NCBI GenBank assembly: GCA_001972305.1
Contig: BDDD01000178.1
Location: 1 to 64,000, forward strand
DNA length: 64,000 bases
Direction: 5' to 3'
From: Cephalotus follicularis
Taxonomy: Eukaryota; Streptophyta; Magnoliopsida; Oxalidales; Cephalotaceae
Within the stretch, counting starts at the first letter, position 1; each line of letters begins with the position of its first letter. Below, piece by piece: positions 1 to 48,518 of this stretch. The notes below the pieces were generated by a model that worked only from the letters and a program-made list of their open reading frames with translations, searched no databases and had not been told where the DNA came from. Made by a program: the position numbers and the translations under genes.

Positions 1-1912
1 CTGTGACCTGTTTGGATACTAAAAGAGGTGGACTTTCTAGTTCCTAACTTGGAACAACAAGGTAGGGGAAAGTGATAGATTTATATGTGCATTTTGAGTT
101 CTAAGTTAAGGTATAGCATGATGAATTGCATGTTGATGCTTGGATTGAGATTCTGGACTTGTTGTAGTATTACTGAGATACACTGAGTTGATTATGCATG
201 TATGATTACATGAATACGTGTATTGCAAGTGAAAAGGATTGATTTAGAAATGGCTTGGTGTGTTAAAACTGTGGAAAACACGTTCTGTGTTGTAAAAGAC
301 ATCGACGTCTTTTATAAAGACATCGACTCCTTTTCTGGGAATTGTATGAACTGTGATGTTCATTTCAGATGGCCATTTAAGCCACTCGGGATCGCCTGTT
401 TGATTTCGATTTGATGTTCTGGTTGTGCTCTTATTAACCAGTAGCATACCTTATACGCTTATAGAGTGATATTCGTTTATCCGAGGGATTAAAAGGTTAG
501 ATTTTACCCTCTAAAACCAAGACTTGCGTTCTGATACCTCTGGTATGAAAAAGACATCGATGCCTTATGGAATGACATCGATGCCTTTTCCCCTGATCAG
601 TAGGATTTCGCTTGAATGAGAACCGTTAGACCGAAACGACTCTAGAAACGAACCTAGATGCATTCTGAGCATATGGTTGCATTGTTACTGTGTTTTGCGT
701 TATGGTTGCTTTCCTAAAAGTGTTAAACCATTTTGAAAAGCTTGCATGATTATTATGATCGTTTGGGTACGAAAATGTATATTTGTCAACACTTGAATTT
801 ATATATTTTCAAAATGCTTGGGGAAGTATTTCCAATGACAGGGAACTGATTTAAGGGTTTGATTATGAAACCAAATGTAATTTGCAAAAATGTATAATTT
901 ATGAATGTATATATTTTCGAAATGATTGGGGAAGTGTTTCCAGAGACAGAGAAATGTATTGTTTTAAGTTTATGACTTATTACAACTTGTGAATGGAAAA
1001 GTATATTTTAAACAAATATATTTTGATCAAGTAATTATATGTAATTGCTTGACTGGTACTGTGAAATGCTTGTGCCTGTTGATTATTAGCCATCGTGCTA
1101 ATAACCTGTTGATTATTAGCCACCATGCTAATAACCTGTTGATTATTAACCACCGTGCTAATATCTTGTTGATTACTTAGCCACTGTGTTAGTAACCTGC
1201 GGTTGGTTTAGTCGCCGTGCTAAACAACTTACTGAGGACTTGCTCCAAAACCATTTGGGTTAAAGCAAGAGTGCGTGACGTTGGGGCCAGGAGGTGGCGA
1301 CGGTCATGACGACTGGTTTGTCTGGTTCCTTTTTGGGAACATATTTACTGCCTGTGTCGATATAACTTGTGAGTTATACTTGTACTGCGAGCATGTATAT
1401 ATTTTTATATGTACACACGGAGGTATTTTACTATAAAAATTACATGTCATGGCTCATCCTTATGCATTCATTCATGATACTCTTTATCTTATGACTCGAA
1501 TTGTGTTTTATGGGTTTGTTCACTTAGCCGAGTGAGGACAAAGGCTAACCCCTACTGTAACAGATTGATGGAGTGGTCTTGACATGGAGCATGCACGGAG
1601 ATTTAAAGAGAAGGCTTGTTATCTCTTTATTTATGTATCATGTTATTTGGGATTTGTAATAATTGATATTTTGTTACCTCGTACTGATGTATTATTTTCA
1701 CGCTCCGTTTTGGGCGATCAACAGTTATGTTGGATTATCGGGCATCACGTAGTATGGGATGCGTGATGTGTTTTTATATTCGGCTCGTTAAGTTATTGCT
1801 TCCGCTATTGAAGGTTTTCTTTTGTTGGTAATTTTGTATGAGCTGGATTACTTTACGTTGATTGCTTTACCACTTATATGTTGTCTATGTTGTGGAAAGA
1901 CGGGGTGTGACA
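1..1912 (+). repeat. LTR of gypsy family X, partial (window start cuts it)
   Basis: This stretch is the reverse complement of most of the solo LTR at 45680-48518: it shares the leader around 1-100, the CACTTAGCCGAGTGAGGAC block near 1530 and the terminal CGGGGTGTGACA at 1901-1912. Its outer end on the left is outside the window, with roughly 0.9 kb missing by comparison with the full copy. It sits directly against the RNase H region of element A1, so it is an insertion into A1. It contains TCGA-centred palindromes (about 292-330 and 546-590) and a ~29 bp minisatellite at 1077-1215. No gene is supported here; the short open frames are incidental. Confidence 0.75.
1077..1215 (+). repeat. Minisatellite in LTR X (~29 bp unit, about 5 copies)
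   Basis: Units of the form TGTTGATTATTAGCCACCG followed by TGCTAATAACC repeat head to tail, with the last units diverged. The full X copy has a shorter, more diverged version at about 46405-46500, so copy number varies between LTRs of the same family. Confidence 0.8.
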
Positions 1913-5310: not shown

Positions 5311-5449
5311 GTCATTGATTTTGATAAAATTGTTTATTACTAGCTACATAATGAGGAAATAAATTGATGACCTAATTCTGTGGTGTGCTCATATTCTATG
5401 TTTTATTCATTATTTTAATGCTCTACTTTATCAAAATTATAAGACATGT

Positions 5450-5454: not shown

Positions 5455-6211
5455 TGTAACACCTCGCGCCCGCAGGGTGGACACGTGGCATTACTCTCAA
5501 TCAAATACACAATACAATGGTAGAGACTAGCAATATAAAAATACGGAAAAACTTAAAACTTTGCAAAGTATCTCATTTGCGGAAGTTACAATATCAATAA
5601 TCCATCCATACTATGCAATACAATACAAATCCTTTACAGTACTAGTGTTTTACAATACCAATCTTTTACAATACACTTATGAATCCTTCACTACAGTATT
5701 ACAATACAATACATTCCAAACTTTTCACTACAATCTCATAACCAGTTCCGCGGTACCCAAGCAGTCATGCGATCAAACGAGTCTTCAGTCCTTCTGTCCG
5801 CTGCTACCTGCTGCCCTACCTATGCCGCACACAAGGTACAACACAGCCCCACCCCGAAGGATGGGGTTAGCCACACGGGCTAAGCAGAAACCTCATGCAG
5901 CATGTATGCATGTACAATGTGCAATATCGGTGACAATCTATACAATATCAATGTGCGGTGTACAATATCAATACATGACATGGCAAATGCATATGTACAA
6001 TTAACGATCAGACTACCCTGTATGACAGTGGCCCATAACAGAGCATACGGATAGGATCTATAATAATCAATCAATCAATGGCAGATACTCAATGGTGGTG
6101 TATGAAACACCCAATCAATCAATCAATATCCTATAGAGCATGCGACAGGTGTCAATACAACATCAATCAGTTAGCAATCATCAATCCCACGGAAGGTAGT
6201 CCTTCAAAAAG
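5455..6211 (-). repeat. B1 3' LTR, distal part
   Basis: This matches the first ~750 bases (plus-strand reading) of the B1 5' LTR at 21872 onward, beginning TGTAACACCTCGCGCCCGC. It stops where element C begins and resumes at 15963. It is rich in CAATACAATA and CAATCAAT repeats. The 147-residue open frame at 5561-6004 recurs in the other LTR but is low-complexity antisense reading and not a supported gene. Confidence 0.9.
6207..6211. repeat. Left target-site duplication of C (aaaag)
   Basis: AAAAG precedes the TG of element C and is repeated at 15963-15967. Deleting C and one copy restores the uninterrupted LTR B sequence seen at about 22615-22630. Confidence 0.93.
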
Positions 6212-8738
6212 TGTAACACCCCCGATGGTGGGAGCCCTTACAAGTCATAATACCAATCTGAAACATAACGGAAATCTAAACAAAAGACTGATACGAAACG
6301 GATGTGGTGGTCTAAAAACATAACTTATAATATGGATATAAAACAGAGTCTGAAAATTTTAACCAATCCTAAATAATTACGAATCATAATCCGATAACCA
6401 AATACTGAAAATCATAACTGAAACAAAACCAAAATCTGAAACTGTTTTTATCTAAAACTAATCTGATCCTACTGGAAAACACAAGAACCAACACCTAGCT
6501 GATACTCTGACGAGTGGATAACTCTCATCACACGTTTCCCCCATCCTTCTGAAAACCTGACACATGGAAACAAAAACGCGGCTGAGCAAACCTCGGTACG
6601 AATAAGGAATTAAAACAGTAAACGATAAACAAAATAATTCGAACTTTAAATTCAGTAAAGTAACATAGTAAATATTCTTGAAAAGTAAAACAGAATATTT
6701 TAAAACGAGCAGTTATAAAATCATCATAACTTTGTGAAAACGTAACATCACAAAACATTATCTGATTTCATAATTCCATAAAAGAGAATTTCTGACATAC
6801 ATACATATATAGGCGCAAGGGGTTCGCGAGGCCCACATGTTCTGACGGAAAAGTCGTGTACGGCACTACACAAACAATCCCAAATACTGAATTTCTGAAT
6901 TTGAGAAATTCTGACATAACTAGAGTATACTCATACGCCTCAAAAGGATCCATATCATACTCTCAGGATACATATTTAAAAGAGACGCCGTAGACCGATC
7001 ACACTGCCACGGTAGGTGTCATGTCCTCCGTGCCAAAGAACGCGCCTATGATACCTCATAGGTAGGGTTTTTCTCTGTATGTTATTATGCTAAAAACATT
7101 GTTTGTTCTCAAATAATTTTAACAATTTCTAAACAATTTCTGATCTTATCTAAAAACAAAATCTTAAGAGTATCTGAAGTTAACATACTCTGAAAGTGGA
7201 AGCCATGTTAATATTTTGATAGTGAAAACACGCATATCAAAACCAATATCCGATGTAACAATACTAAAATTCATTTCAATAAGATTATTATCAAAACGAG
7301 AATATCCGTATCAAAACACGAGTTTTATTGCTAATAAAACCAGGAACATAAATCCATTCGATAAAACGTACAAAATCATCAATTAATGAAAGTTTAATCG
7401 AAGGAGTACCAAAGAACGAAGAATCCGTACCTTAGCAGATCGAAAATCTAAACAAACTAGAATACCGGACAAGAGCACCCTAGAAGTGTCCTAAACTTCA
7501 CCAGGAACGATATTAAGACCTAAACATACGAGTCCAAACATCACATAACATAAAAAGTAGCAAACATCAAAACTGCCATAAAGCGTCGACAGTTTGTTCT
7601 TAGGCGTCGACGGTTTAATTGTACAAATGGACAAAGCGTCGAGCCAAGAGTCGACAGACCAAAGCATAAAACGATACAAAGCAGCGACGCTCGGAACGAA
7701 AGCGTCGACGATTTGCGTTAGAAACAGAATACCAGTTACAAAACTAGTTTCAAATCCATGAGCAACTCATATTTTTCATATATATAAGCTATAGCAGCAA
7801 TAAACAAACTTAAAAATATGTCATATGAGTCTGTATTTATCAGTATGGTGATTATAAACACGAATTATGAAAATAACAAGTTTAGCATAGTGTGTTCATG
7901 TCAAAATATGGTTTTTTAAAATAGTTTACATAATCATGAACTATAGTCCGATTTTCCTGTATATAATCCGTAAAAACAGTAATATATATACATACATACG
8001 TCAATGACATGATTTCTTTTTTTTAATCATCAATATTACAAATTATGCACAAAACCCATGAACACATATTAACAGAAATTTAGTTTCAACAGGCTTCTAA
8101 AAACATGCTCGAAATCAAATTATAGTCAGTTTTAGCACAAATTAATGGGTGGTATAGAAACTACATAATACTAGCTAAAATATTCGTTTAGAAGTTACCT
8201 CCAGAAAATGTCGAAATCAATGCAGAAAATGGCTTGCAAGGTTGCTGTTTGTTTGTAAAAATATGCAGAAAGGGTTTATGCTTTAAAAACGATTTTGTCT
8301 GGTAAAATGCGAAAATCCATGTTTTTAATTGACAAATCAGTATTTTAAAACATTACTATACTAATCAAAACGTGTCAAAAACTTAAGGAAATCGGATAGC
8401 CAAAAAAAGGAAAGAATCCAACCTTCCAAAAACACTGTCACCGTCCAAACTGATATGGAAAGCCGATCAAAGCGTCGACTGTTTACTTAAAGCGTCGACG
8501 GTTAAGAACTTAAATACAAAACACGTCGAAGTCACACATTTAGGCGTCGACGTGCCACCCAGCAGCCAAAGCGTCGGCGGTTCTAAAGAGAGCGTCAGCG
8601 CTTTGTGCCCAGAAAACAATAATAAAAGAAATTCAAGCAAAATAATCAAAAAGGTCCACAAACATAGCATAAGTCAAAAAGGATATGATCCCAAACAATA
8701 AACATACAAACATGTCAACATAGAAACGAGATATTACA
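6212..8738 (-). repeat. C 3' LTR
   Basis: It starts TGTAACACCCCCGATGG and ends GATATTACA, and pairs with 13456-15962. It contains two clusters of TCGA-centred palindromes of the GCGTCGACGGTT type (about 7583-7720 and 8466-8610). Confidence 0.95.
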
Positions 8739-8751: not shown

Positions 8752-8791
8752 AAAAAGGATTTCGTCCCGAAATCACAACCTTAAACATACC

Positions 8792-11700
8792 TTAATCAAA
8801 CAAGCGAGGATATTCCTCTCGAATATGCTCTTCCAACTCCCAAGTAGCTTCACTTTCGGGATGATTCTTCCACAAGACTTTTACAAAAGGAATAGTCTTA
8901 CTACGAGTAACCCTCTCCTGTCTGTCCAAAATAGCCTCAGCCTCCTCATCGCAAGACAAGTCCTCGCGAATGCTATCAAAAGGGTAGTGAACCACGTGCA
9001 AGGGATGGTACCGGTAACCCCTCAACAAAGATACATGGAACACGTTATGAACATGAGATAACCGTGGAGGCAAAGCTAATCGGTAAGCAATCGCTCCAAC
9101 CTTTTCCAGAATTTCAAACGGTCCAATAAACCGTGGACTCAACTTTCCCTTCAGCCCAAACCTTCGAACCCCTTTCCATGGTGAAACTTTTAGAAACACG
9201 TGTTCACCAACTCTAAATTCCAATTCTCTCCGATGTTTGTCTGCATAACTCTTCTGTCGGGATTGAGCTGCTTTCAGTCTTTCTCTAGCTACAGTCACTT
9301 TTTCTGTAGTGATCTGAACTAGCTCAGGCCCTTCGATAGCTCTCTCGCCAACCTCATCCCAACATGTCAGAGATCGACATTTTCTCCCATACAGTGCCTC
9401 GAACGGAGCCATCCGAATGCTAGCATGCCAACTATTATTATATGCGAACTCCACCAAGCTCAAATACTCATCCCAGTTTCCTGCCCACTCTAATGCACAA
9501 GACCTCAGCATGTCCTCTAAAGTCTGGATGGTCCTCTCCGACTGTCCATCTGTCTGTGGGTGAAAAGTTGTACTGTAATTGAGCCGTGTTCCCCAAGCCT
9601 TCTGGAATCCCTTTCAAAATCTAGACGTGAAACGAGGATCCCTATCCGAAACAATGGATACAGGCGTCCCATGTAGTCTCATAATCTCTTGCTGAAAAAC
9701 TTTCGCCAACCGGTCTACAGAAAAGTTCTCCCGGATAGCCAAGAAATGTGCTGATTTAGTCAAACGATCCACCACTACCCAGATGGTATCATTTCTTTTG
9801 AATGTCCTTGGCAATCCTGTAACAAAGTCCATTGCTATGCTCTCCCATTTCCAAACTGGAACTTCCAAGGGCTGTAATAAACCATTGGCTCGTTGGTGCT
9901 AAATCTTAACCTACTGACAGCATAAACACCTCCCAACATACTCTACTACATCCCTTTTCATCCCATTCCACCAGAAATTCTGCTTCAAATCCCTATACAT
10001 TTTTGTAGAACCTGGATGTATAGAGAACGGAGAACTGTGCGCCTCAGACAAAACAGCATCTCTGATAGTAGTATCTGCTGATACACACAACCGACTGCCC
10101 AACCAGATCACTCCATGCTCATCCACACGGAACTCTGTCTGCTTACCCTCATCAACATTCTGGATTAACGCCCATAGTTCACCATCATCACTCTGAGCCG
10201 CCTTAATCCGAGATATAAGGGTAGGCTCTATACTCATGTTAGCCATATAACCTCCAGAACCCCGAACAAACAAATTCAAATCCAAACGCTCCATATCTGC
10301 TATCAACTGCGGCTGAGTAAGCAAAGCCGCCATACTTCCAGAGCTCTTCCTGCTCAAGACATCAGCTACCACATTTGCTTTATCGGGGTGGTACTGAATA
10401 TTCAGGTCATAGTCCTTCAAAAGCTCCAACCATCTCCTCTGTCGCATGTTCAACTCCTTTTGCGTGAAGATGTACTTGAGACTCTTGTGATCAGTGAAAA
10501 CATCACAAGTTTCTCCATACAAATAGTGCCTCCAGATTTTCAACGCAAAAACCACAGCTGCTAATTCCAGATCATGTGTAGGGTAATTCACTTCATAAGG
10601 CTTCTATCTTGAAGCATAGGCTATCACATGACCGTGCTGCATAAGAACACATCCCAAACCCTTCTTGGAAGCATCACTGTAAATCTGGTATCCCCCTGAC
10701 CCAGACGGTAATCGAAGAATTGGTGCAGACACCAAACCGTTCTTCAATTTCTCAAAACTTGCTTCCCTTTCTTCGTTCCACACAAACTTGGCTCCTTTTC
10801 TTAAAAGTTGTGTCAGTGGCAAGGCTATAGAGGAAAAGCCTTCCACAAACCGTCTATAGTAGCCAGCCAGGCCCAAAAAGCTTCTAACTTTCGTTACCGT
10901 AGTAGGCCTCGGCCATTTGGTAATAGCCTCAACCTTAGCAGGATCCACACTAATACCATCTACTGTAACCACATGGCCTAAAAATATTACCTGCTCCAAC
11001 CAGAATTCACATTTCGAAAACTTCGCATAAAGCTGATTCTTCCTCAAAATACCCAGCACTATACAGAGTTGAGCTTCATGTTCTTCTCTCGACTTGGAAT
11101 ACACAGGAATGTCATCAATGAACCCGATCACAAACTTGTCCAAGTATTCATGAAACACCCGATTCATCAAATCCATAAAGACTGTCGGTGCATTTGTAAG
11201 TCCAAATGGCATTACCAGAAATTCATAATGCCCGTACCGTGTACGAAAAGTAGTCTTAGCTACGTCTTCATCTTTCACCCGTAGCTGATGATAACCCGAT
11301 CTCAAATAGATCTTAGAAAAATACCGTGCACTTTGGAGTTGATCAAAAAGGTCATCAATCCTAGGTAAAGGGTATTTATTTCTGATGGTAATCCTGTTCA
11401 GTTCTCTGTAGTCTATGCATAACCTCATAGACCCATCCTTCTTCCTGACAAAAAGAACCAGAGCTCCCCATGGTGAAACACTTGGCCGAATAAAACCCCG
11501 ATCCAACAATTCTTGCAATTGCTCCTTCAGTTCTTGCAATTCTAACGGTGCCATTCTGTAAGGTGTTTTAGATATCGGTGCCGCTCTGGGAATGAGCTCA
11601 ATGGTAAACTCTACTTCCCGTTGCGGTGGCAAACCTGGTAACTCGTCCGAAAACACATCTGAGAACTCTCTAACAACCGGATAGTCCTCAAGGCGAGGTT

Positions 11701-13201
11701 CATCCTTAGAGACGTCTTTTACAACCGCTAGGTAGCCCTCAGCACCCTTAGCTACCATCTTTCTAGCCTTCATAGCAGAAATAATCTTAACTTCTTTTAT
11801 CGGCTGTGAATCCTGATAAACAAAATCAGGCCTATCCACATCCCCAAACAAAACCCTCCGAGTGTGACAGTCAATCGTGGCAAGATGGCGATCTAACCAA
11901 TCCATGCCAAGAATCATGTCGAAGTCATACATATCTATTGGGAAAAGATCCGCATCTCGAACGCGATCATCAAAAGCGATAGGACAAGCACGAAAACATT
12001 CAGATATCATAACAGATGTCCCCATAGAGGTCGAAAGAACCAGAGCTGGATCCAGAGATAGAGATGGCATCCCAAGATGCCGAACAAAAGATCTCGAGAC
12101 TACAGAGTGAGTCGATCCAGTATCATACAAAACATAAGTCATACGACCACAAACAGACACATAACCCGAAATACTACCTGGAGCACCTGCTGCCTGATGA
12201 GTAGTCAAAGCAAAGACTCGACCACCTACATTGCGCTGTCCCGCATTTTCGTCATTACCCTTCCTCTCCTTTGCTCGAGGGTCTGTGCAATCCATGAAAC
12301 GATGGCCCTGCTGTCCGCACACAAAGCATGCCCCCGTAGCTTTGTAACAAGTCCCAACCGGATGCCTCTTCCCACAAGTCTCACACTGTGCAATCTGAAC
12401 ATTGGGGTTACCCCCACCAGTATTCTTCTTTTGCTGCTTACCATTTCGGCCCTTATTATGCTTCCCCGAATTTTGGCCCTGAGAGTCTCCCCTATTTCTC
12501 TTCTTTTCACCTTCTAAGCGAGCAGCCTGAAAATCCAATCTTTCCATCTCTATGTTCTTTGCGGAGTTTGCAACCTCTGACAGATCCGCAAGCCTCGAGT
12601 TAATCAGCTTGCCCCTAAGCTGATAGTGCAACTTCCATTTAAATTTCACTGCCTGCTCCGCTGCTGACCCCGCTACAGGTCCCGCAAAGCCTGCCAATCT
12701 GGTAAATCGGGCTAAAAACTCCGTAACAGACTCACCTTCCTTCTGTCTAGTCATCAGAAACTCCCTTGCATATGCCTCCTTATCAGCAGTGGGGAAATAC
12801 TGCTGATAAAAGATCTCACAAAAATTGTACCAAGACAAAGCCTCAACAAAACCTCCACCCTTAGCTGTTTTCGAGGTCTTCCACCATGTCTGGGCATCGC
12901 CCTCCAGCTTATACGCAGCCAACTTAACCTTCTGATTGTCACTGCATTCCAGCACATCGAAAATCTTCTCCAAATGAGCAATCCAATGCTCAGCCTCCAC
13001 TGGTGTTGGCGCCGAAGTAAAGGATCGTGGTCTCTGTTTTTGGAACCTTTCCAGCCATACATGAACTGGAGTATCAGGATGGTCCCCAGCTCCCCTAGCT
13101 GCATGAGCATCAACTGGTGCATTCTCCTCAGCTACTTGATCACGACGACCCTGTTCATGGTTTTGTTGTTGTTGCATCACTCGGTTCACTTCCTGAGCCA
13201 C
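8792..13201 (-). pseudogene. gag-pol of element C (fossil)
   Basis: The minus-strand order is gag from about 13201 (retrotransposon gag domain, W.RFQKQRP...WWKTS region), knuckles [13 protein letters not shown] and [14 protein letters not shown] at about 12290-12400, protease [10 protein letters not shown] near 12110-12140, RT about 11560-10870 with FIDD near 11110, RNase H about 10720-10400 with the DASKKGLG motif, integrase about 10100-9300 with the zinc-binding region, VVDRLTKSAHF and SIVSDRDPRFTS blocks, and a C-terminal chromo-like segment about 8950-8792 ending WELEEHIREEYPRLF. These are the standard Ty3/gypsy activities: capsid, polyprotein cleavage, cDNA synthesis and insertion. The chromo-like tail is known in chromoviruses to steer insertion to heterochromatin. 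The coding region is broken, with a few breaks. Confidence 0.93.
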
Positions 13202-13439
13202 AACCTATCGAACCATATCATCAATTGCAGGCTCATTTCTTACTCCATCCTGAGCCACAACTGTTTGTTCCTTGTTCATGCCATCTAAGCAACAAAATTC
13301 AAGGCAAGATAAGGACAAAAGAGTCAAAAGGTCAAAACGAAACACATATCAAAAGATCGTAATAAAGATATCCTAACCCAGTCTACCCAATCTCACAGGT
13401 CAAACCTAATCAGGTCTTCTAAGGAAACAAAACCTATGT

Positions 13440-13455: not shown

Positions 13456-15962
13456 TGTAACACCCCCGATGGTGGGAACCCTTACAGATCATAATACTAA
13501 ACCGAAACAAAACGAAAATCTAAACAAAAGACTGATACGAAACGGATGTGGTGGTCTGAAAACATAACTTATAATATGGATATAAAACAGAGTCTGAAAA
13601 TTTTAACCAATCCTAAATAATTACGAATCATAATCCGATATCCAAATACTGAAAATCATAACTGAAACAAAACCAAAATCAGAAACTGTTTTTATCTAAA
13701 ACTAATCTGATCCTACTGGAAAACACAAGAACCAACACCTAGCTGATACTCTGACGAGTGGATAACTCTCATCACACGTTTCCCCCATCCTTCTGAAAAC
13801 CTGCCGCATGGAAACAAAAACGCGGCTGAGCAAACCTCAGTACGGATAAGGAATTAAAACAGTAAACGATAAACAAAATAATTCAAACTTTAAATTTAGT
13901 AAAGTAACATAGTAAATATTCTTGAAAAGTAAAACAGAATATTTAAAAATGAGCAGTTATAAAATCATCATAACCTTGCGAAAACGTAACATCACAAAAC
14001 ATTATCTGATTTCATAATTCCATAACAGAGAATTTCTTACATACATACATATATAGGTGTAAGGGGTTCGCGAGGCCCACATGCTCTGACGAAAAAGTCG
14101 TTTACAACACTACACAAACAATCCCAAATACTGAATTTCTGAATTTCTGAATTCTGACATAACTAGAGTATACTCATACGCCTAAAAAGGATCCATATCC
14201 TACTCCCAGGATACATATTTAAAAGAGACGTCATAGACCTATCACACCGCCACGGTAGGTGTCATGTCCTCCGTGCCAAAGAACACGCCTATGATACCTC
14301 ATAGGTAGGGTTTGTCTCTGTATGTTATTATGCTAAAAACATTGTTTGTTCTAAAATAATTTTAACAATTTCTAAACAATTTTTGATCTTATCTGAAAAC
14401 AAAATCTTAACTGTATCTGAAGTTAACATACTCCGAAAGTGGAAGCCATGTTAATATTTTGATAGTGAAAACACGCATATCAAAACCAATATCCGATGTA
14501 ACAATACTAAAATTCATTTCAATAAGATTATTATCAAAACGACAATATCCGTATCAAAACACGAGTTTTATTGCTAATAAAACCAGGAACATAAATCCAT
14601 TCGATAAAACGTACAAAATCATCAATTAATGAAAGTTTAATCGAAGGAGTACCAAAGAACGAAGAATCCATACCTTAGCAGATCAAAAATCTAAACAAAC
14701 TAGAATACCGGACAAGAGCAGCCTAGAAGTGTCCTAAACTTCACCAGGAACGATATTAAGACCTAAACATACGAGTCCAAACATCACATAACATAAAAAG
14801 TAGCAAACATCAAAACTGCCATAAAGCGTCGACAGTTTGTTCTTAGGCGTCGACGGTTTAATTGTACAAATGGACAAAGCGTCGAGCCAAGAGTCGACAG
14901 ACCAAAGCATAAAACGATACAAAGCGGCGACGCTCGGAACGAAAGCGTCGACTGTTTGCGTCAGAAACAGAATACCAGTTGCAAAACTAGTTTCAAATCC
15001 ATGAACAACTCATATTTTTCATATATAGAAGCTATAGCAGCAATAAAAAAACTTAAAAATATGTCATATGAGTCTGTATTTATCAGTATGGTGATTATAA
15101 ACACGAAATCATGAAAATAACAAGTTTAGCATAGTGTGTTCATGTCAAAATATGGTTTTTTAAAATAGTTTACATAAACATCAACTATAGTCCGATTTTC
15201 CTGTATATAATCCGTAAAAACAGTAATATATATATACATACATACGTCAATGACATGATTTCTTGTTTTTAATCATCAATATTACAAATTCTGCACAAAA
15301 CCCATGAACACATTAACAGAAATTTAGTTTCAACAGGCTTCTAAAAACATGCTCGAAATCAAATTATAGTCAGTTTTAGCACAAATTAATTGGTGGTATA
15401 GAAACTACATAATACTAGCTAAAATTTTCGTTTAGAAGTTACCTCCAGAAAACGTCGAAATCAATGCAGAAAATGGCTTGCAAGGTTGCTGTTTGTTTGT
15501 AGAAATATGCAGAAAGGGTTTATGCTTTAAAAACGATTTTGTCTGGTTAAATGCGAAAATCCATGTTTTTAATTGACAAATCAGTATTTTAAAACATTAC
15601 TATACTAATCAAAACGCATCAAAAACTTAAGGAAATCGGATAGCCAAAAAAAGGAAAGAATACAACCTTCCAAAAACACTGTCACCGTCCAAACTGATAT
15701 GGAAAGCCGATCAAAGCGTCGACGGTTAAGCACTTAAATACAAAACGCGTCGAAGTCACACGTTTAGGCGTCGATGTGCCACCCAGCAGCCAAAGCGTCG
15801 GCGGTTCTAAAGAGAGCGTCGGCGCTTTGTGCCCAGAAAACAACAATAAAAGAAATTCAGGCAAAAAAATCAAAAAGGTCCACAAACATAGCATAAGTCA
15901 AAAAGGATATGATCCCAAACAATAAACATACGAACTTGTCAACATAGAAACGGGATATTACA
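13456..15962 (-). repeat. C 5' LTR
   Basis: The 2507 bp partner of 6212-8738, with the same ends. TCGA palindrome clusters recur at about 14823-14960 and 15714-15830. Confidence 0.95.
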
Positions 15963-24474: not shown

Positions 24475-24479
24475 ATTTC

Positions 24480-34586: not shown

Positions 34587-37500
34587 TGTGACGACCCGAA
34601 TTCCCTTTTGTATTGTTCATGCATACATTGTACCGTATTAGACCGTCTGAACTGTATTGAATTGAGGTATTCTTATGCCTATTGAGATCGTATTGGTTTT
34701 ATGCATGTATAGTCGGGATTTTGAGCTGAGTTTCGGAGAGTTGACCGAATCGACTATATAAGTCAATTCTCACTCTCACTCTCTCAATTGACACATTCTT
34801 CTCCCTCTCTCTATCCTTCTCCCCCCCGCCCTCTCTAGCTGGAGCCTCCATCTTCCTCTCTTGCAGCCGGATTTGCAGCTCCTTCAACAAGGACACCGAG
34901 TACAAGTGGTGACTTACCGATTGAACAAGAAAGTAGCGGATTATTGGGTGATTTCTACCGATCGATTGATTGAGAGGTCAACTTTTGAAGCTTCAGTGAT
35001 AGGTAGGACTTCTTTACTGAATTGCCTACTGCTTTATTGATTGATTGATTGAATTGCATGATTGAATGACTGATTGAATGATTGAATTGAATGTAGTGAG
35101 TGAAATTGGGGTTTTTAGGGTTTTTAAGTAAATCATTGACCTAATTGTTAATAGAAAGATTGAAATGTTAAATTGAAGGTTGTAACTAGTTTTACTAACC
35201 TTAAAGAATGATTTTTAACCCTTGGTTTCTTAAAGAATGGATTTGATTGGATTTTGGCTTGAAAATTGCTGGTTTTCTGCAGAAAAATCGGCCATTCCCA
35301 GCAAAGACATCGATCCCTTTGCCCATGGACATCGATGTCTTTCACTTTGGGATGCAGCCTCCTTGATTTCGCAGCAAAGACATCGAAGTCTTTGAAAGGC
35401 GTCGACGTCTTTTTCTTGAGATGCCTTTCCTCTGAGAAGGCGTCGACGCGAGACATCGATGCGCATTCCCAGGCCATTTTCATTGAAACGCATCGACGTC
35501 TTTGTCCAAGGACATCGACGTCTTCAACCCAATTGAGAAAGACATCGATGTCTTTGAAGGACATCGACGTCTTTCTACCATTTTTAAAGACATGCCCTGA
35601 TACGCATCGACGTCTTTTGCCAAGGACATCGACGCCTTTCAGACTGAGTGGAGTTTTTAACTGTTAAAGCTGGTTTTTCAACCCTTTTCACATTACCGCT
35701 TGACCGGAACCTCACTTGAGGTATTCAAGCGTTTTAAAACATAGTTTTCATTGGTTTTCAAAATTCGAAATGATAGATTGATAGAGTGACAGCTTGAGCC
35801 ATAGGTGACGACTCAATGACTTTCATTGACCAAATAGATGTTCATTCCTATTTTGTCGATTCGATTGTCACCGCCTAGCGGCTACTGATTGTACTGATTG
35901 ATTGTTTGCTTGGGTCATAGGTGTTGCCGTGAGTCTAAGTCGGTAAAACGGATGCACGTTCCCATCCCTCGATTAGGCACCACCACTTATCGGTTTTGCT
36001 TCGACGTTGTATTGATACAATGATCGATTGCTTAAGTCGTGAGTGTTGTTGCGAGCCTAAGTCGGTACGATGGACGCACGTTCCCATTTCTCCATTAGAC
36101 ACCGCCACTTATTGACTTTACCCAATACTGTATTGACTCGATTGATTGATTGATTGTATTGTATGGATCCTATAGAGTGACCTTATGATTCGTGTCGACA
36201 TGTTAGGTCTTTGACTCTGTCCATCTATTCCGCCGATCGTTTCATTTATTGTATTGTATTGACCCGCTGGCGAGCGGTACCGATTGATTGTCGTTTGATG
36301 CTCCCTTGAGGCCGTAGCTCCCTTGGTTGTAGCTCATCGAGACTGTATTGACCCAGCCATAGGCTAGAAGATCTATGAGTCCTAGACCTGATCAATCTGA
36401 GAACCGTACATAGATCTCCCACCCTTTTTGAAGGACTACCTTCCGTGGGATTGATCACCGCTAACCGATTGACATTGTATTGACCCGGTNGTGATAGGTA
36501 GGACTTCTTTACTGAATTGCCTACTGCTTTATTGATTGATTGATTGAATTGCATGATTGAATGACTGATTGAATGATTGAATTGAATGTAGCGAGTGAAA
36601 TTGGGGTTTTTAGGGTTTTTAAGTAAATCCTTGACCTAATTGTTAATAGAAAAATTGAAATGTTAAATTGAAGGTTGTAACTAGTTTTACTAACCTTAAA
36701 GAATGATTTTTAACCCTTGGTTTCTTAAAGAATGGATTTGATTGGATTTTGGCTTGAAAATTGCTGGTTTTCTGCAGAAAAATCGGCCATTCCCAGCAAA
36801 GACATCGATCAATTTGCCCATGGACATCGATGACTTTCACTTTGGGATGCAGCCTCCTTGATTTCGAAGCAAAGACATCGAAGTCTTTGAAAGGCGTCAA
36901 CGTCTTTTACTTGAGATGCCTTTCCTCTGAGAAGGCGTCGACGCGAGACATCGATGCGCATTCCCAGGCCATTTTCATTGAAACGCATCGACGTCTTTGT
37001 CCAAGGACATCGACGTCTTCAACCCAATTGAGAAAGACATCGATGTCTTTGAAGGACATCGACGTCTTTCTACCATTTTTAAAGACATGCCCTGATACGC
37101 ATCGACGTCTTTTGCCAAGGACATCGACGCCTTTCGGGCTGAGTGGAGTTTTTAACTGTTAAAGCTGATTTTTTAACCCTTTTCACATTGCCGCTTGACC
37201 GGAACCTCACTTGAGGTATTCAAGCGTTTTAAAACACAGTTTTCAATGGTTTTCAAAGATCGAAATGATAGATTGATAGAATGACAGCTTGAGCCATAGG
37301 TGACGACACAGTGACTTTTATTGACCAAATAGATGTTCATTCCTATTCCGTCGATTCGATTGTCACCGCCTAGCGGCTACTGATTGTACTGATTGATTGT
37401 TTGCTTGGGTCATAGGTGTTGCTGTGAGTCTAAGTCGGTAAAATGGATGCAAGTTCCCATCCCTCCATTAGGCACCACCACTTATCGGTTTTGCTTCGAC

Positions 37501-40955: not shown

Positions 40956-42231
40956 TGTAACACCCCACATCCGGGTAACAAACCCGAGGCATTACTTACA
41001 GTACATTACAAACAATAGTCGGGCTTAGGTAGTATCAATAAGCAGGATAAACAAAAACTTTCATACATAACATGCATCAATGTATTTAATTGTAATAATA
41101 GCCATCCTTACTAAATATTACATGTCCAAATAATACAATTCTTAGTCCAAGGCAATACATTAAAACAATACATGTGAGAAAGAAAAGCATAACATCACTC
41201 AGTCTTTAGCGCACATAGCTCCCGCTAACAACCTCCGTGATCGTTGGTTCCCACTGTATTACCTAAATCAAAGTAAATGCCCCATCCCAAAGGATGGGTT
41301 AGCCATAGGGCCAAGCAAATATATCCCCATGCACGCATATTATGCTATGTACGGGTATGCACTATCAGTGTTAACATGTGCAATAACAATGTGTACATGT
41401 ACAGTATCATGTCAATATATAAAATAACAGTGAATAGTATATGGATGCATGAATGCCAAATGCAATCTACCAATCGTCTACAACCATCCCATAATGGTGT
41501 ACAAGAATGAGATCTAATCAATCACCTCTATCATCCATCTATAAAACAATCGACAATGGTGTAAAGATACACCCAATAAATCCTATAGAGCATATGACCT
41601 TCATTCAATGGTTCAATACAAAATATCAATGTCAATATCGATAGCGTAACTCACGGAAGGTAATCCTTCAAAAAAGGTGGGTAGACGGGTTTTGTTGTCT
41701 TAGGTTGATCATACATGATCAATTAGACCTACTTAGTAGTGGATACCATCTACGTAACAATAATGGCTGATGCCATAGCAACCCAGCGGCAGAGCCACCC
41801 AAGTGCGTATGCTCGGTAGCTATCCAAGCAGATGCTCAGTGGCTGTGCCACTCGAACACCATGGCTCTACAGGGTAATGGACTAGAGCCTACAATGCAAC
41901 CCGTCAGCGTGTTAATGCAATCAATAGTCACCTTGAGGTGATTGTGATGTAATTAGAGGGAGACTGGTGGGCGTACACAACATCATTTGGTTCTCTACTA
42001 GAATCACGAGGTCGCTCTAATAGGAACAATGCAATGCAATCAATCAATGTCAATAACGATAGGCGGTGAACATCTAACCAAAGGGAACAAATGGTTGTAC
42101 AACCATCGCCTAGCTTCCTGACTAGATAGCGCTAAACACCCACGGTGTCGATAAATCCATCAATAAATTTATAGGCGGCGAAAGTCTAATCATATGGAAC
42201 CGATGGCTGTACAACCATCACCTAGCTTCCT
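40956..42231 (-). repeat. LTR of gypsy family D, partial, interrupted by element E
   Basis: It starts TGTAACACCCCACATCCGGG, has the CCAAAGGATGGGTTAGCC block shared with LTR B in the same relative place, and ends here in a ~115 bp tandem repeat (units near 42052-42125 and 42165-42231, each ending CACCTAGCTTCCTG or close). At 42232 the Athila-like LTR E begins. The rest of D would lie to the right of E, outside what I can identify. Confidence 0.65.
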
Positions 42232-43757
42232 GTTCACGAATTTTGAATGTTTTAAATTTATACTCAAGTGCACGGTTGTGCAGTAATGGGACAAACGTTA
42301 GGAAACAAGCTAAATCAATTTTAATTTATCCAACCTAAGCGAAGTATGCAAAATTGAGGGTTATTTATCAAAAACTACTCCTAAACATGCAAAAATAAAC
42401 TAATTTACTAACACGGGGAAGAAAGGCGTCGACGCTTTGTCTAGGCGTCGACGTGTATAATCGAAAGCAGTAAAGCGTCGAAAAAAAATAGAAGGAAACA
42501 CTTAAAGCGTCGACGCTTACAGGGTAGGCGTCGACGGTTATGCGCACTGAACTGGATTATGCAGAAACTTAAATAGACAAACTATAAACTAATTAAGACA
42601 AGAAATAAACTGAATAAAAGATGCAAATTAAAGTTGATTTTAGGGTATAGAAACTCACCATAAATTATATTGAATAACTCACTTACTTGATTGCTCAAAC
42701 TTGGTAACCAACGACAGCTAGGTCGATACAGAGTGCGACTGTGATGACAAATCGTATGAGTAGTCATTCTAGGTTTATACGGAGTGTGGCAGTGGCGATG
42801 AATCGTATGAGTAGACATGCTAGGTCTATACGCAGTGTGTTCGGCATGACAAACCGTATGAGTAGACTCCATTGATTGTGTTGAAAGCCATTCATTTAGA
42901 AATATTCTTATTCACCGACAAAGTGTTTGTGGATTTTAATAAGACAGGCAAAGTGTTTGTGAAGGCAGAAAATTGAAGAACAAATCAAAGGTTCAAGGAT
43001 TTTATTAATAGAGTTGAATCAATACAATATAATGGCTTGTTCTAATCCTAAAAACCTTGAAAAGTTAGCTAGAAAATATTGTAATAAAATTGAAAACTAA
43101 AGAAGAAGAAGAAGAAGAAGAAGAAGAAGAAGGCGGCTACAAAGCTTGTTACTAGCTTGTACTCTATTTTGTGACCTAGCCCCATCTATTTATACAAGCA
43201 ATCACTTGTAAAAAGTAAAGGAAATAACATTTAACCTAATTAATCCACTTAAGGAAAGTATTACAATGCTAAAAACTCTAAAAACTGCTGTTTTTGTTGC
43301 CTGACGTCGTAAGTGTCGACGCTTATCTTCTGCGCATCGACGGTTTGTCGCTTGGGCGTTGACGCTTTGATGTTATGACGTGAACTCTTTCCACACTTTA
43401 GTTATTAAGCGTTGATGGTAATGAGCAAGGCATCGACGTTTAAAGTGTGTAATTCGATTGATAAACTTCTGTACCAAAGCGTTGACGCTTTTATATTAAC
43501 TGATGGCGCTTTGCGTCTAGGCGTCGACGCTTACAAGCAAGGAGTCGACGCTTTGCTCTGTTTTCTGCAGAAATTTGTCAATTCTTCAAGTTTTGATCTT
43601 CTTGTCTTCAATTCGTGCCAATTTGACTAGTATTTATGCATTTTGATCTTTTTGGCCTTGTACCTGCAAATCAAATAAAGACAACCAAAGTAATATGTTT
43701 CAAGCATAAAAACATCATAAATAGATCAATAAAAATAACACATTTTTATACTAAACA
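42232..43757 (-). repeat. 3' LTR of Athila-like element E
   Basis: On the minus strand it runs from TGTTTAGTATAAAAATG at 43757 to CGTGAACA at 42232, next to a polypurine tract. It contains two palindrome clusters of the GCGTCGACGCTT type (42424-42545 and 43300-43560), three ~53 bp tandem units (about 42715-42868) with the core AATCGTATGAGTAG, and a GAA microsatellite. Confidence 0.7.
43100..43132. repeat. (GAA)n microsatellite
   Basis: About eleven AGA triplets lie in LTR E. Confidence 0.95.
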
Positions 43758-43759
43758 AA

Positions 43760-43772
43760 TACCCCCATACTT
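43760..43772 (-). other. Polypurine tract of E
   Basis: On the minus strand AAGTATGGGGGTA preceded by TTGAGGACAAACAAAGTT, the classic Athila-type tract. A second similar tract occurs at about 44034-44050. Confidence 0.65.
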
Positions 43773-44889: not shown

Positions 44890-44937
44890 ACAGAAAACAA
44901 TTTAAACAATATTAGAACCGTCTCAACGGGATTTCCA

Positions 44938-45679
44938 CTAGTAAAAACCATTAAGAGAACCACAATAATCGTGGCCACCCAACCAGTCAAACATTTGGTC
45001 ATTGATAATGCACACCCTCCATCCTATTTGGTATTTAGTAGGGAAAACGTTATTTTTGAGGGTGGTGTGAGGGTGCGATGGCGTGTTAAGCATGTCAGTG
45101 AAATGGGACAGATCGTACAATTGACTATCCGAAATGGAATCAATGATCCCATCGTCCAACCAACTCAGAATTTCCTTTGGTGTGACCGTCAATACCTCGA
45201 ATTCTCTCAAACATTCCATGAACTTGCTATCAAAATCTATGTCGAAGTGCATTTGGTCAGACGTGGCAAGTTGGTGAGTGTAATGGGAGAGATTATCCCA
45301 TTCACTATCAAATATTTGGCTCAATGATCTCATTTTCCAGCCACGTTAACATTTCCTTTCGGGTAGCTTCCGTTTCCTCGAATTCTCTCATACACTCAAT
45401 GAAGTCTCTATCAAAATCAATGTCAACATATGTGTCAATCCTATCAGGAATCGAGTGTATCACGTAGACTTCATCAAAGTCAGCTTGATGCTTTACCAAA
45501 AGGAAAATGTTAAAGTCCATTGACGATTTTCCAAAACTCAACTTCATGAGACCATTTCGGTAATTTATCAAAGCATTACTCGTTGCCAAGAATGGTCTAC
45601 CAAGGATAACCGAGATTTGATCTTTCATATTCACTACAGGTTGGGTATCAAAAATGACAAAGTCGACAGGAAAGAAAAT
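44938..45679 (-). pseudogene. E protease end and acidic linker with a duplicated module (fossil)
   Basis: SVILGRPFLATSNALINYRNG is the C-terminal part of the retroviral-type aspartic protease in Athila-like elements. Downstream, two related ~40-residue modules share the pattern (D)IDFD..F.EC.REFE...T.KE.L.WL...II, which looks like a tandem duplication in the linker between protease and RT. Confidence 0.6.
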
Positions 45680-48518
45680 GTCACACCCCGTTTTCCAATA
45701 TAAGACAACATATAAAGTGGCAAGGCAATCAACACAAGTTAATCCAGCTCATGCAAATTTACCAATAAATAAGTTTCTTGATAGCGGAAGCAATAACATA
45801 AATGAGCCGAATTTAAACATACATCACGCATCCCATACTACGTGATGCTCAACAAGTTTATAAATAAACCCAACCTCATTGTCGATCGCCCAAAAACGGA
45901 GCGTGAAAATACAGTACGAGATAACAAAATAACCTTTGTTACAATAATCCAATAACACGATCAAAGTTCATTAACCCAATACAAGAAATAAGAGAAACTA
46001 CACAGTCTTCTCTTTAAGTCTCCACGCATGCTCCATCTCATATCCACTCCGTCACTCTGTTACAGTAGGGGTTAGCCTTTGTCCTCACTCGGCTAAGTGA
46101 ACAAGCTTATAAATACAGTTCGAGTCATATGATAATGAGTATCATGAATGAATGCATTATGATGAAATATGACATGTAATTTTCACGATAATTATATCTC
46201 CGTATATACATATATAAAAATATATGCATGTTCACAATACAAGTATAACCTCATGAGTTATATCAACACAAGCAGCAAGTATGTCCCAAAAGGAACCAGA
46301 CAAACAAGTCGTCATAACCGTCGCTACCTCCTGGCCCCAACGGCATGCACTCTTACCCCATCCCCGTTTGCGAACGGTTTTGGAGCAAGTCCTCTGTATG
46401 TCGCTTAGCACGGCGGCTAAACCAACAGCAAGTTACTAGCACATCGGCTGAGTAATCAACAAGTTATTAGCCCAGCGGCTAATAATCAACAAGCACAAGC
46501 ATGGCACCGTACAAGTCAAGCAATAAAATATAATTACTTGATCAAATATATTTGTTTAAAATATATTACTCCATTCACAAGTTGTGATAAGTTATAAAAC
46601 TTAAAACAATACATTTGATTGTATAATCAATCCTTTAAAACGTTTCTCCGTCTTTGAAAATACTTCCCCAATCATTTCGAAAATATATAAATTCATATGT
46701 TGACAAATATACATTTTCGCACAATACATTTGATTTCATAATCAATCCTTTAAAACATCTCTCCGTCATTGGAAAATACTTTCCTGATCATTTCGAAAAT
46801 ATATAAGATCATATGTTGACAAATATACATTTTCGTACAAATGATTATAATAATCATACAAGCTTTTCAAAATGATTAACACTTTTTTTTTGAAATCAAC
46901 CATAATGCAATTCATAGTAATAATGCAAACATATGCTCAGAATGCATTTAGGATCGTTCCTAGAGTCGTTTCGGGTCTAACGGGTCCCATTCGAGTGAAA
47001 TTCCATTAAACAGGGAGATAGGTGTCGATGTCTATCCCTAAGGCGTCGACGTCTTTACCCTAAGGCGTCGATCCTATGTATTCCCAGACATTTTTGGATC
47101 AAAGACGTCGATGTCTTTCTAAAGACATCGATGTCTTTATGATACCAGGAGGTATCAGTTCGCGAGTCTGGATTATGGAGGGAAGAATCCAGCCCCTAAA
47201 TCCTCATATAATCGAAGCTTAACCTCTCAAGGCGTAAGAAAAGCTACTGGTTATCATAGTATGTAACCAGAACGTCAATTCGTAAACAAACGTGTAATCC
47301 CAAGTGGCTACTTTGCCATCTGCAATAAACATCGCAGTTCTATGATTACCCAGAAAAGGCGTCGATGCTTTTACTCAAACAACGATGTCTTTTTCATACG
47401 AACGCGAAGACATCAACATCTTCAGGTAGACGTCGACGTTTATCCAACCCAAAACATTTTCTCCATAGTTTTTAACACAACAGCCATTATCAAAATCATC
47501 CATACATAACCCAGTTAAATATCCATGTAATTTACACATGCATGCTAACTCCGTATATCACAGTAAACACCACAACAAGTCCAAAATCACAATTCAACCA
47601 TTAACATGCAATTCATCATGTTATTCACTAACTTAAAACCCAAAATGCATGTATAAGATTATCACTTTCCCCTACCTTGTTGTTCCACGTTAGGAACTGG
47701 AAACTCCACCCCTTTAAGTTCCCAGGTTCTGGCCACAGTAGCTCCAAGATCCTCTCAGCAACTGCTACCCACGAGCTCCAAGTTCTAGCTCCAATCAAGC
47801 TCAACAATGGTGGCTCTCACACTCACTGGTTTTCTTTTCTTTCTTTCCCTTAGTGTTTTAAAATGAGAGAGAGAGATGAAGGAGGAGGTGTTTTATTAGG
47901 GTAGGAACCCTCCCCTTTTCTCTTTGCTTCATAGATAAACACACCCTCACGTGCTCACCCTCTTCACTCTCTGGTTTTGGCTCATTTCCCTTCTCCTTTC
48001 TGCAGGTTACAGGTGAAGATGGTATATTCTCTTGCATGCACCAGGTGAGAGGCACATTTTGAGCATGCCTGGTAACACACCAGCATGATCAACACGTCGC
48101 ATTGTGCATGTTAAGGCGTCTGGATAATGCCTCAAAGATCCCCCATTGCATGTTACTCTGTCAGTGTATAACGTAACAGATGTTCTTTACAAAGGCGTTG
48201 ACGCCTTTCCTTAGACGTCGATGTATTTTCCTTTTTCACCAGAAGGTGTCGATTCCTTCTCTCTATATCGACGTGCATGCCCATGCATTCACGTGTACCT
48301 CGGTTCCCATAGGCATCGACGTCTTTTGGAAAAGACATCGACGCGTTTCTTCCAAAACTGCGCCATTTTCAAGTTCAACTCACACATTTCTTTCCGTAAT
48401 CAATATTTAGGGTTTGGAGACATCTTTTGAGTTTGAAATTTCAACATTCTCATTAATTCAAGTTTAAGATTACATCTTAAAACGAAATATTACAATTAGG
48501 AAAATACCGGGTGTTACA
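45680..48518 (-). repeat. Solo LTR, gypsy family X (2839 bp)
   Basis: TGTCACACCCCG at 45680 and CGGGTGTTACA ending at 48518 are flanked by GAAAA and AAAAA (4 of 5 identical). It interrupts the protease region of E, whose sequence resumes on the other side. No internal retroelement region is present, so this is a solo LTR left by LTR-LTR recombination. It matches 1-1912 in reverse orientation. It has palindrome clusters near 47018-47140, 47355-47450 and 48190-48350. Orientation is assigned by analogy with LTR B. Confidence 0.85.

What the first reader, a model, noticed from the sequence alone, without database searches (positions are those of the whole stretch)
294..48350. TCGA-centred palindrome clusters shared by LTRs of four different gypsy families
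LTRs X (294-330, 546-590, 47018-47140, 47355-47450, 48190-48350), B (16750-17085, 23425-23765, 29583-29920, 35300-35645, 36797-37135), C (7583-7720, 8466-8610, 14823-14960, 15714-15830) and E (42424-42545, 43300-43560) each carry many copies of a 14-18 base palindrome with A-rich outer arms and a central TCGA: AAAGACATCGATGTCTTT in B and X, AAAGCGTCGACGCTTT in C and E. X, B and C appear to be related chromoviruses, but E looks Athila-like, so simple shared descent is not enough. Each unit can form a hairpin in the RNA and carries one or more CpG sites in a symmetric context. Possible roles: binding sites for a host protein that several families exploit, RNA structure in a long leader, or a satellite-like sequence that spread among LTRs. 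None of these is shown by the sequence.
Basis: partly seen in the sequence, partly recalled or inferred. Interest (0 to 1): 0.8.

Follow-up and report, generated by a model that had tools for sequence, protein, structure and literature searches.

The report
Shared palindrome arrays in plant retrotransposons
Unrelated families of jumping genes in one large plant-like genome carry arrays of the same short mirror-symmetric DNA word, often set about two DNA turns apart, which looks like a docking platform for a shared DNA-binding protein that has not been identified here.

Summary
The window holds 40 sites within one mismatch of AAAGRCRTCGAYGYCTTT, against 0 in 50 dinucleotide shuffles. The 1.58 Gb genome holds 9,899 exact AAAGACATCGATGTCTTT, against 8 for the reversed control. 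E is not a mis-assigned X/B/C member: its gag and protease do not match theirs (best E 0.004). Palindromes also occur beside Copia gag genes.

Partners lie 19-22 bp centre to centre: 63 partner distances at 19-22, 0 at 8-18, 0 at 23-29, for 124 non-redundant sites. Genome-wide, 301,089 pairs lie within 12-42 bp, against 8,157 control. One asymmetric variant faces inward 950 times, outward 21.

Pairings that break a sense-RNA stem are not depleted. Central CpGs are retained better than others. In three LTRs of two unrelated families the array precedes a TATA-like box.

Best reading: cis-regulatory arrays for a dimeric DNA-binding protein. Closest known: Sirevirus repeated motifs, described as Sirevirus-specific (PMC2829016). 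This is a variant shared across superfamilies. Protein and species are unknown.

The parts
295..588 (+). X-family LTR (window start to about 1912): two pairs of palindromes at 295/316 and 550/571
   Evidence: sites; match to the X LTR at 45679-47719
6212..8738 (-). C LTR (one of two), intact cores near 7608, 7706, 8496 and 8548; 16-bp-type sites, sparse
13456..15962 (-). C LTR (second copy), 3 intact cores
8795..13204 (-). C internal region: gag, protease (RVP_2), RT, RNase H, integrase zinc finger, SH3, chromodomain (chromovirus)
16749..17085 (-). B LTR palindrome cluster (LTR cut at 15961 by the C element)
23425..23761 (-). B LTR palindrome cluster, LTR 21872-24476
29581..29917 (+). B LTR palindrome cluster, LTR from 28869; perfect 18-mer at 29816
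35303..35639 (+). B LTR palindrome cluster, LTR from 34584; first site is the asymmetric variant AAAGACATCGATCCCTTT with its partner 22 bp away on the CCC side
36798..37134 (+). B LTR palindrome cluster in the part after the single N at 36490
42231..43759 (-). E LTR; sites at 43300-43560 lie upstream of TATAAATA (LTR position 566; three other TATA-like words in this LTR), second cluster at 42424-42545
45311..50462 (-). E internal region: gag (50052-50462) and protease (48519-48935 and 45311-45679) interrupted by the X solo LTR; no RT or integrase match in the E pieces scanned
45679..48519 (-). X LTR (apparently solo), clusters at 47018-47140, 47355-47450 and 48190-48350

Best explanation
The clusters are cis-regulatory arrays of dyad-symmetric binding sites. 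Each 16-18 bp palindrome (consensus AAA(G)RCR-TCGA-YGY(C)TTT) binds one dimer of a sequence-specific DNA-binding protein. Neighbouring dimers sit on the same face of the helix two turns (20-22 bp) apart and bind cooperatively. The arrays lie mostly in the LTR, in the clear cases upstream of a TATA-like box, where they would raise element transcription or keep the promoter open. Several unrelated lineages (the related gypsy families X/B/C, the distinct gypsy-type element E, and at least one Copia lineage) exploit the same protein, probably a host transcription factor. New sites arise partly by tandem duplication of 50-85 bp units and are then kept by selection while the spacers drift. Shown: abundance, spacing, directionality, better retention of the central CpG, sharing across families. 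Inferred: protein binding, dimerisation, selection, activation, host origin of the protein.
For: Spacing: for 124 non-redundant cores, intact partners at 8-18 bp 0, at 19-22 bp 63, at 23-29 bp 0, and a lower rate per bp in every later bin to 130; with one mismatch allowed 5, 107 and 4 (a pair counts twice when both members are in the set). Genome-wide 301,089 pairs at 12-42 bp vs 8,157 control; of the first 100 listed places, all on contig C1 and partly related copies, 66 are at 19-22 bp, 3 at 12-18, 4 at 23-29, 27 at 30-42. Direction: variant half-site TCGATCCCTTT faces its partner 950 times (493+457) against 21 outward (9+12; that pattern is two bases more specific, and copies of one family count apart); all 100 listed inward pairs are at 20-22 bp although 15-23 was allowed, with about 20 different spacers. 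Centre: AAAGACANNNNTGTCTTT occurs 11,845 times, 9,899 of them with TCGA, control 115. Between diverged copies the central CpG of an intact core is kept in 142 of 167 comparisons, CpGs outside sites in 590 of 1,012. Within clusters 18-mers are 0.63-0.79 identical (8 of the 18 positions are selected by the search) while flanks are 0.27-0.38 against 0.25-0.27 background. Position: sites 234-421 before the TATA-like box at 566 (E), 264-500 before 595 (L027), 124-724 before 829 (L014). RNA pairing not favoured. Sharing.
Against: No binding protein is identified and no expression, footprint or methylation data were available. Over all 18 bp, sites are not reliably more conserved than their surroundings between copies: higher in 9, equal in 3, lower in 3 of the 15 pairs with sites (rounded values). 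For the central CpG the rule fails in E vs L006 (3 of 5 vs 44 of 55) and shows no difference in L011/L031 (4 of 7 vs 20 of 36). In B, C and X the promoter position is unclear: the only TATA-like box in B lies about 570 bp before the cluster; E has three and L027 two further TATA-like words; in L026 one cluster is in the leader. Halves of one site are slightly more alike than halves re-paired at random (6.30 vs 5.90 of 9, 0 of 1,000 shuffles), which an RNA stem would also give. Helical phasing beyond the first neighbour is weak: nearest gaps of 26 bp or more give Rayleigh p about 0.11; all distances 26-130 give a best period of 10.3 bp with R 0.21, but are not independent. Three Copia elements with top gag matches have no core in the 2.5 kb upstream (3 of 3), so the array is not general. 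The CRTCGACTCC variant, mostly of X, has its partner on the unaltered side in 4 of 5 cases.
Confidence: 0.58

Rival explanations
1. The sites are targets of an anti-silencing protein encoded by one of the elements, as VANC proteins of Arabidopsis VANDAL transposons bind short motifs that multiply in their non-coding DNA; unrelated elements free-ride by acquiring the motif.
For: Motif arrays in non-coding DNA, and members of one LTR family with different site types: E has 16-bp-type sites, L027 18-bp-type sites, while the LTR parts on both sides align at 77-79% and the cluster section does not. VANC targets form tandem repeats that evolve together, and VANC6 also affects AT9TSD1, which is not related to VANDAL (PMC5735166, passages). 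A bZIP_2 match at its cut-off (22.3 bits) in a Copia gag ORF of L007 and a bZIP_1 match below cut-off (24.0 of 27.6) in L023 are unfollowed leads; I take them as coiled coils.
Against: No VANC-like domain turned up in the 59 ORFs scanned, but most copies are incomplete and not all ORFs were scanned. The motif is spread over several lineages, which favours a common host factor.
Confidence: 0.2
2. The palindromes act as RNA: hairpins in the transcript or leader that serve packaging, or that the host cuts into small RNAs.
For: Two clusters fold much better than shuffles: z -6.9 (B, 100 shuffles) and -7.7 (L014, 20 shuffles). Halves of one site are slightly more symmetric than chance re-pairing, and the pairing test leans weakly the same way in some sets (p 0.02-0.08). 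In maize an excess of small RNAs maps to palindrome-rich Sirevirus LTR regions (PMC10760457, passages, reporting Bousios et al. 2016, which is not held).
Against: In coding orientation the combination that breaks a sense-RNA stem (A-C) is not rarer than the one that keeps it (G-T): 19 vs 8 at the CpG position and 13 vs 11 at the outer position, for the 73 orientable of 124 non-redundant sites. A 20-22 bp spacing and an inward-facing variant are not needed for hairpins. Folding strength follows from palindromes by construction.
Confidence: 0.1
3. No function: a satellite-like unit multiplied by slippage and was copied between LTRs by template switching.
For: Tandem units of 85 bp (L018, 3 copies) and about 70 bp (L014) exist; a short spacer word AAAGTTACAGG is shared by clusters in L002/L003, L014 and L027; 18-bp identity between copies is not consistently above the surroundings.
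Against: Flank identity within clusters is close to background; spacing and direction rules hold across about 20 different spacers; central CpGs are kept better than others.
Confidence: 0.1
4. The host uses the motif against the elements, as a docking site for a silencing or boundary protein.
For: CpG-bearing symmetric sites would suit maintenance methylation (inference).
Against: Elements would be expected to lose such sites; instead several lineages carry many.
Confidence: 0.05

Closest known systems
Sirevirus repeated motifs (RMs), Bousios et al. 2010, PMC2829016 (passages; sections 6, 9, 12 and 17)
   Same: Short palindromes, 8 or more copies per element, clustered in the LTR shortly before a TATA box, rich in CpG; extra copies outside the LTR. 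One RM (Tnd-1, ACAATCGATTGT) is also TCGA-centred, and so is the Vitis RM CGGTCGACCG.
   Different: Reported as Sirevirus (Copia) specific and with a CGG-CCG core except Tnd-1. Here one palindrome is shared by related gypsy families, a distinct gypsy-type element and Copia elements of one genome, with a 20-22 bp pair register and a directional variant. Spacing between units is not discussed in the parts I read.
Maize Copia palindrome CACCGGACNNNGTCCGGTG, also the commonest structured motif in Helitrons (PMC10760457, passages)
   Same: A palindrome shared across transposon superfamilies in one genome; thought cis-regulatory.
   Different: Other sequence; shared with Helitrons, not with gypsy, in the passages read.
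VANC/VANDAL anti-silencing system, Arabidopsis (PMC5735166 passages; PMC10398659 passages)
   Same: Short target motif multiplied in non-coding transposon DNA, members differing in motif type, effect on an unrelated element (AT9TSD1).
   Different: DNA transposons; target motif YAGTATTAY of VANC21 is not a perfect palindrome; no VANC-like gene found in the pieces scanned here.

Membership tests
Sirevirus repeated motif | Carrier is a Ty1/copia element of the Sirevirus genus | tested here: not met
   B and C have RT before integrase, RVP_2 and SH3_Tf2-1, with a chromodomain in C; X has RVP_2; RTs of X, B and C are 64-66% identical. Copia carriers also exist.
Sirevirus repeated motif | 5' LTR/PBS junction CA-A(T/G)TGG-TATCAGAGC | tested here: not met
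   X-type L018: ACATGGTATCAGAGC; Copia L026 and L031: ATCAGTGGTATCAGAGC. No TATCAGAGC found in L014, so that Copia carrier could not be tested.
Sirevirus repeated motif | Palindrome with CGG-CCG core (12 of 13 published RMs) | tested here: not met
   Core is RCRTCGAYGY; Tnd-1 is the published exception.
Sirevirus repeated motif | Many copies clustered upstream of a TATA box in the LTR | tested here: inconclusive
   Met by sequence in E, L027 and L014; unclear in X, B, C. No start site is known.
VANC-type anti-silencing target | Element encodes the cognate DNA-binding protein | tested here: inconclusive
   No VANC-like domain among 59 ORFs scanned (re-scanned 4). Two bZIP-like matches (L007 at cut-off, L023 below) and Transposase_32 in L011 (over cut-off) were not followed; copies incomplete.
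VANC-type anti-silencing target | Short motif repeated in non-coding DNA, units changing together between relatives | tested here: inconclusive
   Clusters lie in LTRs. E and L027 differ in site type within one LTR family, a single comparison.
Chromovirus (X, B, C) | Chromodomain at the integrase C-terminus | tested here: inconclusive
   Found in C; not found in the X and B ORFs scanned, which are broken; assignment of X and B rests on RT similarity to C.
Athila/Tat branch (E) | RT of the non-chromovirus plant gypsy branch | tested here: inconclusive
   No RT found for E in the pieces scanned. gag and protease show no significant match to X/B/C (best E 0.004). The G-run before the LTR and the protease wording look Athila/Tat-like from recall only.

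The most novel reading that the evidence does not exclude
One multimeric DNA-binding protein of this host reads a common regulatory grammar (an 18-bp dyad, a 20-22 bp register, and an asymmetric lead site facing inward), and Gypsy and Copia lineages have independently acquired or exchanged it, so that a large part of the genome's retrotransposons is controlled by a single trans-acting factor.
Probability: 0.35. Interest if true: 0.82.

Novelty: new variant of a known kind. Interest (0 to 1): 0.64.

Why it matters
If one protein reads these arrays, it would be a single handle on the activity of many retrotransposon families at once, and could explain how unrelated families expand together in one genome. 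The array makes a direct test possible: one EMSA or DAP-seq experiment with a 40-bp paired probe could name the protein. It also shows that palindromic repeated motifs, described as a Sirevirus trait, are not confined to Sireviruses.

Tried and rejected
Chance: rejected. E as a mis-assigned X/B/C member: rejected on gag and protease, with linkage of the E LTR to E's leader in L006. RNA hairpins as the main reason: disfavoured, not excluded. Within-pair complementarity as a longer RNA stem: reverse-complement identity within 58 pairs 13.4 of 18 vs 13.1 for other sites, p 0.09; direct identity 14.3 vs 13.9, p 0.04, no clear signal. Pure tandem-repeat drift: disfavoured. Helical phasing beyond the first neighbour: weak. 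Comparison with LTRs of other plants: no plant collection was on hand. Known plant transcription factor sites were thought over only from recall and none is claimed. A review of host factors (PMC12786077, two passages) held nothing on palindromes. Literature: no paper with this palindrome in LTRs was recognised in the listings shown (846 hits, 15 listed); that is not proof of absence. The sample is 20 stretches of 10 kb at fixed steps on contigs C5-C955, not a true random draw. The site sets also include eight loci fetched because they hold the motif, and copies of one family are not independent.
Full report
OBSERVATION. A mismatch scan of the window with AAAGRCRTCGAYGYCTTT finds 11 exact sites, 40 at <=1, 56 at <=2 and 64 at <=3 mismatches; 50 dinucleotide shuffles give means of 0, 0, 0 and 0.3. 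The core CRTCGAYG occurs 70 times in the window, its control GYAGCTRC twice. The genome in which the window lies (1.577 Gb, 9,746 contigs, no name given; plant-like by its elements) has 9,899 exact AAAGACATCGATGTCTTT against 8 for the pattern read backwards, 3,552 AAAGCGTCGACGCTTT against 5 and 30,741 ACATCGATGT against 652. In 20 sampled 10-kb stretches (fixed steps on contigs C5-C955) there are 89 cores in 13 of 20 stretches, 9 of which have five or more, against 2 control words.

CARRIERS. X, B and C are related gypsy elements: their RTs are 64-66% identical in protein, all have RVP_2 proteases, and C has a chromodomain. E is different. Its gag and protease give no significant match to the others (best E 0.004, gag against gag). 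Its gag matches Retrotrans_gag, and its protease matches Asp_protease_2 weakly, below the curated cut-off, and not RVP_2. The E LTR is linked to E's leader in a second copy, L006. No RT was found for E in the pieces scanned, so 'Athila/Tat-like' rests on recall of its polypurine tract and protease wording. The X LTR at 45679-48519 appears to be a solo LTR inside E's protease frame. Palindromes also occur beside Copia gag genes. In L014 a cluster at 5806-6406 lies about 0.4 kb upstream of a gag region that matches, at 70% DNA identity, the Copia-type gag of L023. In L026 they lie on both sides of a tRNA-Met primer site next to a Copia-type gag, and L031 is a relative of L026 with the same primer site. 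Three other Copia elements, ranks 1, 3 and 6 of the gag search and picked for long open frames, have no core in the 2.5 kb upstream of the gag match (3 of 3), so the array is not universal.

ARCHITECTURE. Deduplicating by context leaves 124 of 222 intact cores. Their intact partners lie at 8-18 bp 0 times, 19-22 bp 63 times, 23-29 bp 0 times, 30-34 bp 11 times; per bp the 19-22 bin has 15.75 and no later bin exceeds 4.0. A genome-wide pattern for two half-cores 12-42 bp apart gives 301,089 places per strand, against 8,157 for the control. Of the first 100 listed, all on C1, 66 are at 19-22, 3 at 12-18, 4 at 23-29 and 27 at 30-42 bp. An asymmetric variant, AAAGACATCGATCCCTTT or close to it, recurs in B, in the Copia cluster of L014, in the E-type LTR of L027 and in L001/L002. 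Of 33 hits of the variant word CRTCGATC, 14 have a neighbouring core at 15-26 bp: 9 only on the altered side, 3 on both, 2 only on the other; 19 have none. Genome-wide the inward arrangement occurs 950 times and the outward one 21 times, the latter pattern being two bases more specific. All 100 listed inward pairs are at 20, 21 or 22 bp (71, 4, 25) with about 20 different spacers. A second variant, CRTCGACTCC, mostly in X, has its partner on the unaltered side in 4 of 5 cases. Beyond the first neighbour, all distances of 26-130 bp give a best period of 10.3 bp, but nearest-neighbour gaps alone give p 0.11, so phasing there is only a hint.

CONSTRAINT. AAAGACANNNNTGTCTTT occurs 11,845 times and 84% of these have TCGA in the middle. 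Across 16 pairs of diverged copies, which share sequences and are read in both directions, the central CpG of an intact core is kept in 142 of 167 cases and CpGs outside sites in 590 of 1,012. One pair goes the other way (E/L006 3 of 5 vs 44 of 55), one shows no difference (L011/L031 4 of 7 vs 20 of 36) and one (L014/L026) has no site to compare. Over the whole 18 bp the sites are not reliably better conserved than their surroundings: higher in 9, equal in 3 and lower in 3 of the 15 pairs with sites, by rounded values. Constraint is therefore seen at the centre, not over the full word. Within nine clusters the 18-mers are 0.63-0.79 identical, partly because 8 of 18 positions were selected, while their flanks are 0.27-0.38, background 0.25-0.27. 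Tandem units of 85 bp (L018) and about 70 bp (L014) show how sites are added. A spacer word AAAGTTACAGG is shared by clusters in L002/L003, L014 and L027, so some exchange or common origin of modules is possible.

DNA OR RNA. RNA folding of two clusters is far better than shuffles (z -6.9 and -7.7), as any palindrome array must be. At the CpG position the two half-sites vary nearly independently in the non-redundant set (G..C 51, A..T 21, G..T 23, A..C 29; p 0.25); at the outer position p is 0.06, and in the oriented sets p runs from 0.02 to 0.08. Halves of one site are slightly more symmetric than halves re-paired at random (6.30 vs 5.90 of 9; 0 of 1,000 shuffles reach it), which may reflect family differences, DNA-level symmetry or pairing. 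The more telling test is directional: in coding orientation, A..C, which breaks a sense-strand stem, is not rarer than G..T, which keeps it by wobble (19 vs 8 at the CpG position, 13 vs 11 at the outer one, 73 sites; all 147 orientable copies 45 vs 17 and 29 vs 23). Selection for a sense-RNA stem predicts the reverse. Recognition of double-stranded DNA by a dimer fits.

POSITION. In E the upstream cluster (LTR positions 234-421) precedes TATAAATA at 566; in the E-type LTR of L027, 264-500 precedes TATAAAAA at 595; in the L014 Copia LTR, 124-724 precedes CTATATAAAG at 829. The scan also lists other TATA-like words in E (10, 265, 1498) and L027 (1139, 1280); I chose those with a plausible place, so this is a judgement. 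In B the only TATA-like box is before the cluster, in X and C none is clear, and one L026 cluster is in the leader. No transcription start is known, so this is suggestive only.

MECHANISM AND RIVALS. I take the arrays as cooperative binding platforms for a dimeric protein, most likely a host transcription factor exploited by several lineages. An element-encoded anti-silencing protein of the VANC kind is the main rival. It is favoured by E and L027, whose LTRs align on both sides of the cluster but carry different site types. No VANC-like domain turned up in the 59 ORFs scanned; two bZIP-like matches (L007 at its cut-off; L023 below it) were not followed. RNA structure, neutral repeat spread and host silencing are less likely.

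KNOWN. The nearest precedent is the palindromic repeated motif of Sireviruses, which lies upstream of a TATA box in the LTR and is said to be Sirevirus-specific with a CGG-CCG core except Tnd-1 ACAATCGATTGT (PMC2829016, passages and sections 6, 9, 12, 17). X, B and C fail the Sirevirus test of superfamily; L018, L026 and L031 fail the junction test; the core differs from 12 of 13 published motifs. A maize palindrome shared by Copia and Helitrons is reported in PMC10760457 (passages). I recognised no report of this palindrome or of its spacing rule in the listings, which cover open-licence papers only and show part of the hits.

CHECK.

Noticed in passing
L024:1-10000 (G000:C805:50001-60000): A 163-bp satellite fills the whole 10 kb (61.5 copies, 84% matches) with CpG observed/expected 2.12, more than twice that of any of the other 19 sampled stretches.
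   Followed up: partly
window 34996-37998, N at 36490: A single N separates two B LTR stretches that are 96% identical (34996-36489 and 36491-37998); possibly an assembly join rather than a true tandem LTR.
   Followed up: no
oriented sites: In coding orientation the left CpG is changed to CA more often than the right one to TG (A..C 45 vs G..T 17, all 147 copies; 19 vs 8 non-redundant, p 0.05), a strand asymmetry of G-to-A over C-to-T that I cannot explain.
   Followed up: no
window 29426-29945, 35148-35667, 36758-37162, 23397-23916: Open frames of 134-171 aa run across the B palindrome clusters, on both strands in three of these four copies; probably a by-product of the palindrome words lacking stops.
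   Followed up: no
window 1912/1913: An X-type LTR end abuts a pol region read in the opposite direction, with its primer site at 4806 (-), so one element appears nested in another.
   Followed up: partly
L034:1240-2160 (upstream of a Copia gag on C298): A Copia element without the palindrome carries a different recurring word around GAGGACGCA/ATGCGTCC in its upstream region (seen by eye).
   Followed up: no
window 50738-53318: About 2.6 kb absent from the E-type copy in L006 interrupts the E leader, apparently a later insertion; parts recur in L011, L012, L017 and L021.
   Followed up: no
L011:9325-9999 (+): ORF matching Pfam Transposase_32, 'putative plant transposon protein', over its cut-off.
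   Followed up: no
L007:2232-3500 (+) and L023:8659-9501 (+): bZIP-like matches in ORFs of loci that carry palindromes (22.3 bits at cut-off; 24.0 of 27.6 bits); probably coiled coils, but a possible lead for an element-encoded DNA-binding protein.
   Followed up: no
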